Positions 45,263 to 50,244 of a stretch of 64,000 nt of DNA are shown here, one piece after another. Numbering within the stretch: the first letter of the stretch is position 1; each line of letters opens with the position of its first letter. The notes beneath the pieces were generated by a model. The model was not told the origin of the DNA, ran no database searches, and saw nothing but the letters and a program-made list of their open reading frames with translations. This DNA comes from Fervidobacterium thailandense (GTDB lineage Bacteria; Thermotogota; Thermotogae; Thermotogales; Fervidobacteriaceae): positions 124,001 through 188,000 of the forward strand of contig NZ_LWAF01000003.1 in assembly GCF_001719065.1 (NCBI RefSeq). Direction: 5' to 3'. The position numbers were made by a program, and so were the translations under genes.

Positions 45263-46261
45263 TTAGTTTTGTTGGATGGTTTGACCTATTCTGCTAATCT
45301 CCGTGATTAGGAATCCCTTTAAAACGGCCGTCATCGTTTGAACAATGTCGAGTGTGATTTTAAGAAGTTTGTCCAGTTTCCCCTCACCCTCAAGTTTCTT
45401 AAAGTCGTCCATCGAGGGAACTCTCGTTTCTAAAATACCTGAGAACGCGCGTCTAACTTCTCGGTGAACTTCCGGGAACTTGTAATAACCGTACATCATA
45501 ACCTCGTAGATGAGTTTCTCCGGATCACCACTTACAAACCTCGGTTGTGTTTGACGAATGATTTCTCTCACATCCTCCGCATGTTTGGAGTAGTACACCA
45601 AAAACAGTAAGTAATTATCATACGTGTAATGCGCGTTGTTCAGCATTCTCATGACTTTCTTGTCGAACAAACCGCTAAGCACTTCCCAGAACGTCCCGGG
45701 GGAATTGTGGTAAGGTTGGAACAAGTCCTCAAGGTAGTGGATGGCATAAGACAGGAACCTGTAGCCCCAGTACTCATCACCTTTTTTAAAGGCCTCGCGG
45801 GACATGTTTACAAAATGGACAAACGACCGATCACCCTCAAACGCTTCGATCGGCCCGAGTTTATAGCGCATGTGCCGGACACCCTGACTGTTACCGATCA
45901 GTGCTTGGAGTGGTGACAGGTTCAGCTCCTCGTCCATACCAAAGTCCGGGAACTGAGCGTAAATGGTCAGTATCTGCCAGACTGGAAGCTTACCGTCAAC
46001 CGGTTCGGGATCAGGTGGAAAAACACCATCACCAAGATCGTCGAAGAACTTCCTTTTTCCCGCAAAATCATCTTTGTAGTAATGCTTTTCGTTGTAGATC
46101 CTGGTTTCTTTATAGGTGTATGGAGTGATCTGAACGAGTTTGTCAACATCGATAGGCAAGGATCTCACAACCAAGTAAGTATACGCCTCATGACCACTCC
46201 AAGCTAATGAAAAAGTGGCCAACGAAAGTACGAAAATCGTGAAGTGCTTCAAATTTTTCAC
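45263..46261 (-). CDS. Secreted zinc-dependent phospholipase C / S1-P1 nuclease-like protein
   Basis: 332 residues from GTG 46261 (AAAGGAG 10 nt upstream). A signal peptide ends in SLA just before Trp21. Candidate zinc ligands follow the trinuclear pattern: Trp21 (new N-terminus), His24, an Asp near 106 or 110, His130, then H-x3-D (His175, Asp179), His185 six residues later and H-x3-D (His211, Asp215). The ordering and spacing agree with Bacillus phospholipase C and P1 nuclease. Substrate class, lipid or nucleic acid, is not decided by these residues. It lies between a secreted esterase and a chemoreceptor in one likely operon. Confidence 0.7.
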
Positions 46262-46268
46262 AGCTCTC

Positions 46269-47435
46269 TCACTCCTTTCCAAAGAAGAACATCAATAGTT
46301 CGGGAAACCTCCTTGCCCACGCACTTTCGGAGTGTGGTGCATTCCTGTCTTCCAAGTACAACAAATCCACGTTTTTCTTCATCTGAAGTAGCTTGTTCAT
46401 GTTCCTTGCATCGAAGAGGTACACCTCGGGATTGGAACCCTCCGCAGTTCCAACATCCATATAAATTTTTGTCGGATACTGGAATTCGTTTTCTTTTACG
46501 TAATCGAATATCTTCTTATTCGCAAACCAAAACGCGGGGCTCATGACACCGAGCATTGAAAAAACATCGTTGTGTTTCAACCCGATGTACAAGGAGATTA
46601 ATCCTCCCATGGACGACCCACAAATAGCTGTGTTTTCACGATCCGGTAGCGTTCTGAAATTTGCATCGATGTACGGCTTGAGCGTTTCGACGATGAACTT
46701 TGCGTACAAATCTCCTTTGCCTCCACCGTAGTTTTCATCAACCCACGGGGAGTATTCGTTTCTCCTCTCGACACCAGTGTTGTAAATACCGACGATGATG
46801 ATCGGCCTTATAGCTCCTTCCTTTATCAATCGCTCAGCAGATTCATCCGCTTCCCATTCGATGCCACTGAACGAAGTTGATTTGTCGAAAATGTTCTGAC
46901 CATCGTGCATGTACAAAACAGGGTAGCGTTCCGTTGAGCTTTCATAATCCGGAGGTAAATAGATGATGATGTTTCTGTAATTTCCAAGCTCGGGAGAATA
47001 GAAATTTTCAATCAGCTTGATGTTCCCGGTGTACGTCTTTCTCATCCCAGCCTTCCCCTTTTCCACAAAATCCCTCCAATGCATCACAACAAGTTTGACC
47101 TCCATGTCATCTTGAATCTCCAAAACTCGGTTGGCTATCTCCTCACCGCGAGAGCCCTTTTCTACCGTTTCCCAAGAACCTCTCGTGAACTTGAATTCTA
47201 TCCTTCCCGAGAGTTCGAAGGTGCCAACGTAGTACCAACCTTCCCTGTACAGTCTAAACCGCGGATCACCAGGATTCCAACCGTTGAAATTTCCAGCTAT
47301 GAATATCTCAGCATCATCAGGTGTGTACGTGGGAACTTCAACGATGAATGTTACTTTATACCCAAAAATTTTAGTGGCAGACACTACGGTTAGTATCATC
47401 GCAAAGAAGATTAACAGCTTTCCAAAACGTATCAC
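46269..47435 (-). CDS. Secreted alpha/beta-hydrolase esterase with N-terminal Ig/CBM48-like domain
   Basis: 388 residues from GTG 47435 (GGGAGG 7 nt upstream; a longer frame to 47480 would begin at the predicted transcript start). A signal peptide (about 1-20) precedes a CBM48/Ig-like domain (about 26-120, EIFIAGNFNGWNPGDP) and an esterase-D type catalytic domain with nucleophile Ser275 in GSSMGG, an Asp region near MDVGTAEG, and His in APHSESAW near 369. It recalls the T. maritima EstA architecture. Substrate choices include short acyl or feruloyl-type esters. It is first of three genes with the phospholipase-like protein and a chemoreceptor. Confidence 0.88.
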   Translation of the reverse strand: MIRFGKLLIFFAMILTVVSATKIFGYKVTFIVEVPTYTPDDAEIFIAGNFNGWNPGDPRFRLYREGWYYVGTFELSGRIEFKFTRGSWETVEKGSRGEEIANRVLEIQDDMEVKLVVMHWRDFVEKGKAGMRKTYTGNIKLIENFYSPELGNYRNIIIYLPPDYESSTERYPVLYMHDGQNIFDKSTSFSGIEWEADESAERLIKEGAIRPIIIVGIYNTGVERRNEYSPWVDENYGGGKGDLYAKFIVETLKPYIDANFRTLPDRENTAICGSSMGGLISLYIGLKHNDVFSMLGVMSPAFWFANKKIFDYVKENEFQYPTKIYMDVGTAEGSNPEVYLFDARNMNKLLQMKKNVDLLYLEDRNAPHSESAWARRFPELLMFFFGKE

Positions 47436-47494: not shown

Positions 47495-47592
47495 CATCAG
47501 GTCGATAAATATGAAAGAGAAAAAAGTTTTTCTGAGAAACTGCTAAAAACACGTGAAACAATTTACACTACGTCAAACGGTAGGTGAGAAGC

Positions 47593-48480
47593 ATGCGCGT
47601 TGATAAGTACGGAATTTCATTGGAAGCTGAGAACCTTTCTTTGAAGTATTCGAAAGTGAGGCAAAGTATACTATGCTACAAAACACCTGATACCCTTCAT
47701 ATAACCATTAGGGAACACCGACCATCGCTCGACGATAAGGAACTGATGAAACTTAAAATTCTCAAGAGCATGCTCGAAAAGCTCACGGGAAACAAGCTAA
47801 AGCTCTACCTTCCAAAACCCACTTACAGTGTCGAGGTAAGCCTGGAGCGAGGCCAGGAAGTTGTCGAAATGGACAGCGAAGAAGAGAACTTGGAAGTTCA
47901 GTATTCTGGTTTCACAGCGAGAGGATTTGTTAAAACAAAGGATGGTAGAACTGTAGAGTTCTCGGCCAGAATCGAAAACTTCTCTTTGACTTACTCGTAC
48001 CGCAGAATCCACGAAAAGGTTGTTGATCCGATAGTTCTCGAACTTGGAGGCACCGAAAGTAACAAAAAAGCCGTGGAGATCGATTTGAACTTCGACGGTC
48101 AAAAAGAACGTTTCTTCATCGGAGGAGGTTTAGGTTTTCTGGTCTACGATCGCAACGGTAACGGAAAAGTGGACAGCGCCGACGAACTTTTCGGACCGAG
48201 AACGGGGGACGGTTTTGCCGAACTTGCAAGACTGGACACGGATGGAGATAACTGGATTGACGAGGACGATATCGAATTTCTCAAATTGAAAATCTGGACC
48301 GTCGACGAAAACGGTCGTGAGAAACTCGTTGGATTACTCGACCTGAATGTGGGAGCCATCTTTCTGGGGAATGTAAGTACACCTTTTGACTATTACGATC
48401 ACATCGTTAGGAAATCAAGCATTTATCTGAGTGAGTCGGGAGCGCTAGGAGTGGTGAAGCAAATCGATTTGAGAGTTTGA
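47593..48480 (+). CDS. Ca2+-loop protein, hypothetical
   Basis: 295 residues from ATG 47593 (TAGGTGA 5 nt before; GTG 47584 overlaps that site). No signal peptide or transmembrane helix. The C-terminal half contains two calcium-binding-type loops, Asp186 to Asp197 (DRNGNGKVDSAD) and Asp215 to Asp226 (DTDGDNWIDEDD), in a module (EIDLNFDGQ, GGGLGFLVYDRNGNG, ELFG, GFAELARLD) that I associate with large secreted calcium-binding proteins. The N-terminal half (about 1-150) is unrecognised. It is divergent from the secreted esterase operon. How or whether it is exported is unclear; type I or flagellar routes lack an N-terminal signal. Confidence 0.75.
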   Translation: MRVDKYGISLEAENLSLKYSKVRQSILCYKTPDTLHITIREHRPSLDDKELMKLKILKSMLEKLTGNKLKLYLPKPTYSVEVSLERGQEVVEMDSEEENLEVQYSGFTARGFVKTKDGRTVEFSARIENFSLTYSYRRIHEKVVDPIVLELGGTESNKKAVEIDLNFDGQKERFFIGGGLGFLVYDRNGNGKVDSADELFGPRTGDGFAELARLDTDGDNWIDEDDIEFLKLKIWTVDENGREKLVGLLDLNVGAIFLGNVSTPFDYYDHIVRKSSIYLSESGALGVVKQIDLRV

Positions 48481-48490
48481 TACTACACGA

Positions 48491-49447
48491 TTATTTCACA
48501 GGCTCCAAATTGAATTTATTGGCCATTTCTTCGAACGTGCATATTCCATCACCGCAGGTACTTAAACTGTACTTCAGTAGCAAGATCTTTCCATCCTTTT
48601 CCTTTGCCAACTTAACGATTTTTTCATCGAAATCGCTGGCAATTAGGATACCAGCAACCGAGTTCGCGCTTTTATCAATGTAATCGAGGACCTGCTCGAC
48701 CGAATCTTTTCTTGCTTTTCCTTTCTTTACTTCAACGATTATTTGCCGAGCAGACTCCAACGGGTACTTCGGTTTTATCAACAGGTCAACGAAGCCCTGC
48801 TCGGTGGCTTTCTCACTGAGGATTTCCCACTCTTCTCCGCTGCCATCGATCCCGAGCCTGTCAAAAATTTCTCCTAATACATCCCCCAATTTTCTCTTAA
48901 CTAAGACCTGCAAAATCAACTCGTTGAACGCAACTGTCCCGTCCCTTGGCTTCGTATTTCCAAGCGATATTTTTGGCACATACTCCAACTCTTCCGGAGC
49001 GGAATAGTAACTTACGTTCATAGACCTAATTTCTTGCCCTAAGGTCGAGACAAAATGCAGCGTGATCTGATACGCTTGAAAATGTGTCTTCCTGTAGCCT
49101 CCTCTTAGCAACAAATCCTCGGCAACGTACAAGAATTCCGGGCGTACAATAGACTCGTTGAAAGTCCTAACGGGAACAAGAAGAAGTCTGTAGGGAAAAG
49201 TGTAAACCTTCCCCGACTTGAACCTAATAGGTTTCCACGGATCGGATAAGTTTTTGAACGCCTTCTTTTTCACAACCCTGTAAAGGTTGTATATCCGCGC
49301 ACCGTACAGAAATGAAACGTAATCACCCTCTTCTATTTCGAGAAACGTCCAAAATCCACTCTGGCTACCTGGGAAACCGGCCATGTTGTACTGTAGACAA
49401 ATTTCCAAATTCTCTTTGCTCGATACTGCCAGTAGAAAGTAGCCCAT
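48491..49447 (-). CDS. EVE/PUA-like domain fused to NucS-like nuclease domain (putative modification-dependent nuclease)
   Basis: 318 residues from ATG 49447 (GAGGAG 7 nt upstream). The N-terminal region (about 1-150; GYFLLAVSSKENLEICL, FWTFLEIEEGDYVSFLY) resembles EVE domains, PUA-like readers of modified bases. The C-terminal region (about 195-300) shows a PD-(D/E)XK core, Asp221 then Glu239-Val-Lys241 (VDLLIKP, IIVEVKKG), followed by a helix (SVEQVLDYIDK) as in NucS/DUF91 nucleases. The combination suggests a nuclease targeted by base modification, that is, type IV-like restriction. It lies 43 nt downstream of a DUF429-like gene. The domain calls are from memory of the families and need profile confirmation. 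Confidence 0.65.
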   Translation of the reverse strand: MGYFLLAVSSKENLEICLQYNMAGFPGSQSGFWTFLEIEEGDYVSFLYGARIYNLYRVVKKKAFKNLSDPWKPIRFKSGKVYTFPYRLLLVPVRTFNESIVRPEFLYVAEDLLLRGGYRKTHFQAYQITLHFVSTLGQEIRSMNVSYYSAPEELEYVPKISLGNTKPRDGTVAFNELILQVLVKRKLGDVLGEIFDRLGIDGSGEEWEILSEKATEQGFVDLLIKPKYPLESARQIIVEVKKGKARKDSVEQVLDYIDKSANSVAGILIASDFDEKIVKLAKEKDGKILLLKYSLSTCGDGICTFEEMANKFNLEPVK

Positions 49448-49490
49448 CGGATCACTCCTCAAATCTTTTCAGTCGTTTTCAACGTGTTTA

Positions 49491-50177
49491 TCAGTTTTCA
49501 AGGGAAACTTTTGGATAACAAATCCTCATCGGTATCCCGAACGAATCGTAGGGATATCGTTGAGGGATAGTTTCAAGTTTGAGGACTTGCGCGATAGCCA
49601 AGACTGCCGCATCGACAAGATCGTGTTTTGGAACCGAGAAGTGCGATGAAAAGGCTTCTACTTTTCGGCTTAACCCGGGGCAAAAATTCTCAAGAATTTC
49701 GAGTCTCATCTTAAGTCCTTCAGCCGAGTGTTTGGATGGCAAAACCTTTCCCGAGAGTTTCAGAAAGCACACTTCAGGATGCGATTCAAAAATTTTCTCC
49801 ACAAGCCAGTGTTTCGAACGCAAGATAGTATCCACCTCGATTACCTTCGAACGGATGTTCCAGAACTGTTTTGAAAAGCCTCGCCCTTGAAGTCTTCTAT
49901 TGATATCCAGAGCTGTTTTAAAATCCCCCGCGTAAACTGCCTCCCGTGCGGGTACGGTGAAAACGGTTGACGCTCTACCTTTCAACATTTTCCGCGCAAG
50001 CTGGTCGCACTCGCGCAATCCTGAGGAGGGTAAGCCTATAGGTATGTCCACAAGCATAAAACGGAAATCGCAGTCGGGTATCGTGAACGTGGGAGACAAA
50101 TAAAAATCCAATTTTTTTGATGGCTCATAAAGGCAGTAGATCCAACCGTTCCTTGTTCCATCAACACCTACAAGCAA
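49491..50177 (-). CDS. DUF429 family protein (predicted RNase H-like fold)
   Basis: 228 residues if started at TTG 50177 (AGGTGA 5 nt upstream; a GTG at 50186 abuts GAAGG). The family blocks are VGVDGTRNGWI at the N-terminus, LVDIPIGLP and RECDQLARKMLKGRASTVFTVPAREAV in the first half, and ESHPEVCFLKL and HDLVDAAVLA in the second. The acidic residues (N-terminal VGVD Asp, VDIP Asp, HPE Glu, HDLVD Asp) fit an RNase H-like nuclease centre. The family is described only as predicted nucleases. It precedes the EVE-like nuclease fusion in the same direction and follows the ECF genes by 58 nt. Confidence 0.8.
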   Translation of the reverse strand: MLVGVDGTRNGWIYCLYEPSKKLDFYLSPTFTIPDCDFRFMLVDIPIGLPSSGLRECDQLARKMLKGRASTVFTVPAREAVYAGDFKTALDINRRLQGRGFSKQFWNIRSKVIEVDTILRSKHWLVEKIFESHPEVCFLKLSGKVLPSKHSAEGLKMRLEILENFCPGLSRKVEAFSSHFSVPKHDLVDAAVLAIAQVLKLETIPQRYPYDSFGIPMRICYPKVSLEN

Positions 50178-50244
50178 CTTTCTCACCTTCGATATACAAC
50201 AGAGGCAAACTCCTCGTTTAGTTAGGCCTCGCTATTTCTGTTGG

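What the first reader, a model, noticed from the sequence alone, without database searches (positions are those of the whole stretch)
48491..50177. EVE-like domain fused to a NucS-like nuclease, next to a DUF429 protein
The 318-residue protein appears to join a PUA/EVE-type modified-base reader to a PD-(D/E)XK nuclease core (Asp221, Glu239, Lys241). Only 43 nt upstream lies a DUF429 protein, a family predicted to be an RNase H-like nuclease. A reader-nuclease fusion beside a second putative nuclease looks like a compact modification-dependent restriction or nucleic-acid quality-control module that I do not know to be described.
Basis: partly seen in the sequence, partly recalled or inferred. 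Interest (0 to 1): 0.63.

Follow-up and report, generated by a model that had tools for sequence, protein, structure and literature searches.

The report
Modified-base reader fused to DNA-cutting enzyme
This gene joins a domain that probably recognises chemically modified DNA bases to a DNA-cutting domain, most likely to destroy foreign modified DNA; the design was already predicted in other microbes, and the neighbouring gene that seemed to be its partner is there by chance.

Summary
The fusion is real. Window 48491-49447 (-) encodes 318 aa that AlphaFold models with high confidence (pLDDT 92.6). The N-terminal domain folds like YTH/EVE modified-base readers. The C-terminal domain is a NucS-type PD-(D/E)XK nuclease whose active-site residues D221, E239 and K241 are identical in 51 of 51 homologues. 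Foldseek's best PDB match to the whole chain is the modification-dependent restriction enzyme MspJI.

The proposed partnership with DUF429 fails. No other homologue examined has DUF429 beside it. DUF429 occurs without the nuclease in two relatives and stays with an ECF-transporter operon in the sister genome.

The true partners lie in other genomes: an 80-aa protein overlapping the nuclease stop codon (23 genomes), and an N6/N4 DNA methyltransferase beside it (9 loci). Genomes with an intact methyltransferase of this family usually carry a broken nuclease (5 of 8, against 6 of 56; Fisher p=0.0026, not significant after tree correction). Where the nuclease is intact, four of five readable adjacent same-family methyltransferases are broken. 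This fits methylation-dependent cleavage better than ordinary restriction-modification.

Bell et al. 2020 already reported EVE-, YTH- and DCD-PD(D/E)XK fusions as predicted type IV restriction enzymes. This is therefore a member of a known kind; its partners and the reciprocal decay appear new. No cleavage data exist.

The parts
48491..49447 (-). Reader-nuclease fusion gene, 318 aa, ATG start
   Evidence: homologues
49043..49447 (-). N-terminal YTH/EVE-like (PUA superfamily) reader domain, about residues 1-135; W33, W71, F84, R87, R115, H122 and F123 are invariant
   Evidence: fold; conservation, 51 sequences
48554..48850 (-). C-terminal NucS-like PD-(D/E)XK nuclease domain, about residues 200-298 (E208, E212, D221, E239, K241)
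49455..49460 (-). Shine-Dalgarno sequence GAGGAG of the fusion gene
49491..50186 (-). DUF429 gene (RNase H-like superfamily by literature); neighbour, judged not part of the system
   Evidence: PMC3985635
50245..53223 (-). ECF-transporter operon (two EcfA-like ATPases, EcfT-like, S component) upstream of DUF429; syntenic with DUF429 in the sister genome G001

Best explanation
A stand-alone modification-dependent (type IV-like) DNA endonuclease. The YTH/EVE-like domain flips out and holds a modified base, most likely N6-methyladenine and less likely N4- or 5-methylcytosine. The NucS-type PD-(D/E)XK domain then cuts the DNA nearby, probably as a dimer. It protects the host against DNA carrying methyl marks that the host lacks. 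It moves horizontally among mostly hot-environment archaea and bacteria. Shown here: the two folds, the invariant catalytic residues, patchy spread across domains, frequent decay, linkage to DNA methyltransferases and to an 80-aa protein in other genomes, and no linkage to DUF429. Inferred: the ligand, DNA as substrate, cleavage, and defence.
For: Fold: YTH/EVE reader plus NucS nuclease; the best PDB match to the whole chain is MspJI, though whole-chain TM-scores are low. Residues 1-150 match by sequence only MJECL36, an EVE/YTH-like protein, and weakly (E 1.5). Catalytic residues are invariant in 51 of 51. The gene is patchy in the bacterial family (5 of 20) and in the Thermococcaceae phylum (about 13 intact plus 5 broken in 115 genomes), with archaeal and bacterial rows interleaved in the tree. 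DNA N6/N4 methyltransferases sit beside it in 9 loci. The nuclease is intact while the adjacent methyltransferase is broken in L020, L026, L034 and L041, so it does not need that enzyme for protection. Of 8 genomes with an intact methyltransferase of this family, 5 have a broken nuclease, against 6 of 56 others (p=0.0026). The window genome has no methyltransferase of that family.
Against: No biochemistry exists for any member of this family. Three genomes (G126, G161, G782) have both an intact nuclease and an intact methyltransferase, and L038 has another N6/N4 methyltransferase head to head with an intact nuclease. The tree-corrected test is not significant (p 0.25), and some breaks in metagenome assemblies may be errors. 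The m6A aromatic cage could not be measured. The window copy is not in an obvious defence island, and PADLOC has no strong match. The window genome does encode one large N6_N4-type methyltransferase, 851 aa.
Confidence: 0.62

Rival explanations
1. Restriction enzyme of an ordinary restriction-modification pair: it cuts unmethylated DNA, and the linked N6/N4 methyltransferase protects the host.
For: Nine loci have an N6/N4 DNA methyltransferase adjacent, several head to head. PADLOC calls these enzymes type II methyltransferases. L083 and L038 have both genes intact.
Against: Most homologues, including the window's, have no methyltransferase of that family in the genome. Four loci keep an intact nuclease beside a broken methyltransferase, which should be lethal. 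The N-terminal domain has the fold of modified-base readers.
Confidence: 0.12
2. DNA-repair or quality-control endonuclease of thermophiles: the reader detects a damaged or deaminated base and the NucS-like domain cuts beside it.
For: The nuclease domain is closest to NucS/EndoMS, a mismatch repair enzyme, and the hosts are largely from hot environments.
Against: Patchy, horizontally spread and often pseudogenised, unlike repair genes. Some hosts keep a separate NucS gene as well (G581, G599, G572). Linkage to DNA methyltransferases.
Confidence: 0.13
3. RNA-targeting enzyme: a YTH-like reader of m6A in RNA coupled to an RNase, as part of RNA quality control.
For: The best fold matches include eukaryotic YTH domains bound to RNA.
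Against: NucS-type PD-(D/E)XK domains act on DNA. The linked enzymes are DNA methyltransferases. Archaeal YTH-McrB is reported to bind m6A DNA (quoted in PMC7641849).
Confidence: 0.06
4. The fusion and DUF429 form a two-nuclease module.
For: The genes lie 43 nt apart on the same strand. DUF429 is assigned to the RNase H-like superfamily (PMC3985635).
Against: No other homologue examined has DUF429 nearby. DUF429 occurs without the fusion in G001 and G015, and in G001 it sits in the same place behind the ECF operon.
Confidence: 0.03

Closest known systems
EVE-, YTH- and DCD-PD(D/E)XK fusions, predicted type IV restriction enzymes (Bell, Wolf and Koonin 2020, PMC7641849)
   Same: PUA-superfamily modified-base reader joined to a PD-(D/E)XK nuclease; DCD and YTH variants are said to occur mostly in archaea, DCD also in hyperthermophilic bacteria; predicted to restrict modified DNA
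   Different: That paper's main text does not name NucS, the 80-aa partner or the reciprocal decay with a methyltransferase family. Whether its supplementary lists include this family could not be checked.
MspJI (SRA + PD-(D/E)XK, 5mC-dependent)
   Same: Best whole-chain Foldseek match (E 4e-6); reader plus nuclease
   Different: SRA rather than YTH/EVE reader; the nuclease here is NucS-like; 9-11% identity and low whole-chain TM-score
VcaM4I (EVE-HNH endonuclease, PMC7897488)
   Same: EVE-type reader in a modification-dependent enzyme; fold match
   Different: HNH nuclease instead of PD-(D/E)XK
Thermococcus gammatolerans McrB YTH domain, and MJECL36
   Same: Prokaryotic YTH/EVE-like domain; MJECL36 is the only, weak, sequence match of the N-terminal profile
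   Different: TgMcrB is a GTP-driven McrBC system; MJECL36 (147 aa) has no nuclease domain
NucS/EndoMS
   Same: C-terminal nuclease domain and active-site motif
   Different: Lacks the NucS N-terminal domain; 27 bits against the 216-bit NucS equivalog cut-off

Membership tests
PUA superfamily, YTH/EVE branch (N-terminal domain) | YTH/EVE fold | tested here: met
   Foldseek prob 1.00 to YTHDC1, Mmi1, 1zce and VcaM4I, TMt mostly 0.5-0.6 against single-domain structures, on a model with pLDDT 92.6
PUA superfamily, YTH/EVE branch (N-terminal domain) | Match to a Pfam EVE (PF01878), YTH or DCD (PF10539) model | tested here: not met
   none of 31 members matches at E<=1; it cannot be filed under any one of these Pfam families
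YTH m6A readers | Aromatic cage that binds N6-methyladenine | tested here: inconclusive
   Invariant aromatics W33, W71, F84 and F123, but no coordinates were available to measure a cage
NucS_C nuclease domain (PF01939) | Domain above Pfam gathering score, with D, E and K of the active site | tested here: met
   (29.9 against 24 bits)
NucS/EndoMS (full protein) | NCBIfam equivalog score and NucS N-terminal domain | tested here: not met
   (27.1 against 216 bits); the N-terminal domain has another fold
Modification-dependent (type IV) restriction enzymes | Cuts modified but not unmodified DNA | not testable with these tools
   Needs purified protein
Modification-dependent (type IV) restriction enzymes | Reader domain plus nuclease domain, no cognate methyltransferase needed | tested here: met
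   most hosts, including the window genome, lack the linked methyltransferase family; intact nuclease beside broken methyltransferase in 4 loci
Type II restriction-modification | Cognate protective methyltransferase present with the nuclease | tested here: not met
   absent for the window. A methyltransferase of an unrelated family could still serve: one 851-aa N6_N4 enzyme is present
DUF429 | Pfam PF04250 above cut-off | tested here: met
   E 1e-44 (neighbour gene 49491-50186)
DUF429 | Nuclease activity (RNase H-like) | not testable with these tools
   Superfamily assignment by PMC3985635; activity only predicted there

The most novel reading that the evidence does not exclude
A DpnI-like but structurally unrelated methylation-dependent nuclease (YTH-like reader plus NucS-type nuclease) that reads the mark made by one family of archaeal and bacterial DNA methyltransferases. 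The two genes meet at the same loci but cannot stay active together, so one decays when the other arrives. A dedicated 80-aa partner tunes the nuclease.
Probability: 0.27. Interest if true: 0.6.

Novelty: new member of a known kind. Interest (0 to 1): 0.42.

Why it matters
If correct, it adds a heat-stable, two-domain, methylation-dependent nuclease family found in Thermotogota, Thermococci, WOR-3 and other lineages, including isolates that could be expressed directly. The reciprocal decay with one methyltransferase family gives a concrete, testable guess at its target mark. Readers of N6-methyladenine in DNA are few, and a thermostable one would be useful for mapping methylation. It also helps to cover the gap between prokaryotic restriction readers and eukaryotic m6A readers.

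Tried and rejected
DUF429 partnership: rejected. Phage or plasmid origin: no matches in phages, plasmids or viral contigs; PHROGs gave nothing useful; the viral fold library gave only scattered reader-like or nuclease-like single domains. ECF-transporter linkage: the fusion sits near ECF operons in the window, in G016 and in L016, but L016 and G016 look like one locus, so this was not pursued as functional. Cobalamin adenosyltransferase neighbours (L010, L016, L019, L049): probably shared synteny. The 80-aa partner: AlphaFold model (pLDDT 85) but no PDB fold match below E 1; HicB appears only at E 1.5 and is not claimed. The single-sequence scan of genome contigs found nothing; the alignment scan found 37 loci. 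A DCD assignment was considered from a remembered motif resemblance (N, C, GDxxSFLY, FPxR) but Pfam DCD does not match, so it stays a lead. 'Nuclease cassette inserted into methyltransferase genes' was considered for L020, L026 and L034; no downstream methyltransferase remnant was found, so insertion is not shown.

Full report
WHAT IS THERE. The minus-strand gene 48491-49447 encodes 318 aa, with ATG at 49447 preceded by GAGGAG. Pfam finds NucS_C at residues 211-288 (E 6e-7, above the curated cut-off). No Pfam reader model matches the N-terminal half, either here or in 30 homologues. An AlphaFold model from 31 homologues has mean pLDDT 92.6 and pTM 0.90. In the PDB the whole chain matches MspJI first (E 4e-6, low whole-chain TM-score). 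The C-terminal part matches NucS/EndoMS and the N-terminal part matches YTH domains (Mmi1, YTHDC1, YTHDF2) and EVE proteins (1zce, VcaM4I) with probability 1.00; the split by part is read from aligned lengths and the domain order, as residue ranges are not printed. A profile of residues 1-150 finds a single, weak PDB sequence match (E 1.5), and it is MJECL36, an EVE/YTH-like protein. The profile aligns D221, E239 and K241 with the NucS active site. These and E208, E212, W33, W71, F84, R87, R115, H122 and F123 are identical in 51 of 51 full-length homologues.

DUF429. The gene 49491-50186 is a clear DUF429 member (E 1e-44), a family assigned to the RNase H-like superfamily by Majorek et al. (PMC3985635). 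It is not a partner. In the bacterial family, DUF429 is found in G000, G001 and G015, while the fusion is found in G000, G004, G005, G014 and G016. In G001, the sister genome, DUF429 (78% identical) follows the same ECF operon as in the window. That contig ends inside DUF429, so the next gene is unknown, but the genome has no fusion gene. None of the other homologous loci carries DUF429.

SPREAD. The family is sparse and wide. It is found in 5 of 20 genomes of the window's family. A scan of genome contigs gave 37 loci in archaea and bacteria, mostly from hot settings, at 31-63% identity in the best segment. Phylum searches found about 13 intact and 5 broken copies in 115 genomes of the Thermococcaceae phylum, 8 full-length in 147 WOR-3-type genomes, and 6 full-length plus fragments in 349 genomes of the phylum of G156. 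The remaining hits at residues ~210-300 are ordinary NucS genes. In the tree, archaeal and bacterial rows interleave (for example L025 bacterium with L036 archaeon, support 97). The members of the window's family fall in separate places, and the window protein is a long branch alone. No copy was found in phage, plasmid or viral collections.

REAL PARTNERS ELSEWHERE. (1) An 80-aa protein overlaps the nuclease stop codon by 4 nt in many loci. It is present in 23 genomes counting degenerate copies, and no copy was found in 39 other genomes, most of which carry the nuclease without it (that search had no positive control). It has no Pfam, PHROGs or PADLOC match and no PDB fold match below E 1. The window genome lacks it. 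(2) An N6/N4 DNA methyltransferase (PF01555, order X-I-IV, THPPY motif) lies beside the fusion in L020, L026, L034, L035, L041, L047, L052 (1.3 kb away) and L083, and a different N6/N4 methyltransferase lies head to head in L038. With a few such enzymes in about 2000 genes, chance would give well under one.

RECIPROCAL DECAY. Where the nuclease is intact, the adjacent methyltransferase is broken in four loci: L020 (C-terminus missing), L026 (TGA and short C-terminus), L034 (stops at residue ~117, frameshift) and L041 (C-terminal remnant only). Where the methyltransferase is intact, the nuclease is broken in L047 (catalytic domain lost), L052 (split, residues 57-216 missing), G154, G572 and G194. 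Counter-cases with both intact are G126 and G782 (different contigs) and G161 (adjacent). L038 also has both intact, but with another methyltransferase family. L035 is cut by a contig end. The table for nuclease-bearing genomes is: methyltransferase intact, 3 intact and 5 broken nucleases; methyltransferase absent or broken, 50 and 6 (Fisher p=0.0026). On independent tree pairs the direction is consistent (2.5 agree, 0 oppose), but five pairs are too few for significance (p 0.25). Some breaks in metagenome assemblies may be sequencing errors. I therefore call this suggestive.

MECHANISM. A conventional restriction enzyme must have its methyltransferase. This nuclease mostly lives without that family, outlasts it when it decays, and is usually broken where it is intact. 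Together with a modified-base reader fold, this favours a nuclease that cuts DNA bearing a methyl mark. The mark is probably N6mA: the nearest folds are YTH domains, archaeal YTH-McrB is reported to bind m6A DNA (quoted in PMC7641849, and PMC11037411), and the linked enzymes are N6/N4 amino-methyltransferases. Shown: folds, residues, distribution, linkage. Inferred: ligand, substrate, cleavage, defence. The window genome encodes one unrelated 851-aa N6_N4-type methyltransferase, so the mark must be sequence-limited or of another kind for the host to be safe.

KNOWN OR NEW. Bell, Wolf and Koonin 2020 (PMC7641849) describe EVE-PD(D/E)XK, YTH-like-PD(D/E)XK and DCD-PD(D/E)XK fusions as predicted modification-dependent restriction enzymes. 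[quoted passage not shown] The main text does not mention NucS; supplementary lists could not be read. The finding is thus a member of a known predicted kind. What I did not find described is the 80-aa partner and the reciprocal decay with a defined methyltransferase family.

VERDICT. Observation confirmed; interpretation partly supported; the DUF429 module rejected; moderate interest, mainly because the target mark is now testable.

Noticed in passing
window 45263-46282 (-): 339-aa protein with conserved-looking His/Asp motifs ([23 protein letters not shown]) resembling zinc-dependent phospholipase C / S1-P1 type enzymes, yet no Pfam match at E<=10.
   Followed up: no
window 47584-48480 (+): 298-aa protein with two EF-hand or dockerin-like calcium loops (DRNGNGKVDSADE, DTDGDNWIDEDD), below Pfam cut-offs, convergent with the fusion gene (about 10 bp between their stop codons).
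   Followed up: no
L020:1792-2544, L026:1801-2769, L034:7614-7998: N6/N4 methyltransferase genes truncated at different points right where the nuclease gene begins; no downstream remnant found. Possible gene replacement or insertion.
   Followed up: partly
L034:8957-9199 and homologues (23 genomes): Uncharacterised 80-aa protein (KKRLFxFxTPDGVTYSS..PDVDNFQVLG.GEG..EEEAF) translationally coupled to the nuclease; no known family.
   Followed up: partly
L010, L016 and the window: The fusion gene lies beside an ECF-transporter operon in three loci (window, G016 and bacterium GBS-1; the latter two look syntenic).
   Followed up: partly
L010:6911-7438, L019, L049: A cobinamide/cobalamin adenosyltransferase-like gene (P-loop GNGKGKTTAAFG) adjoins the fusion in both Thermotogota and Thermococcaceae loci; probably coincidence or a shared insertion spot.
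   Followed up: no
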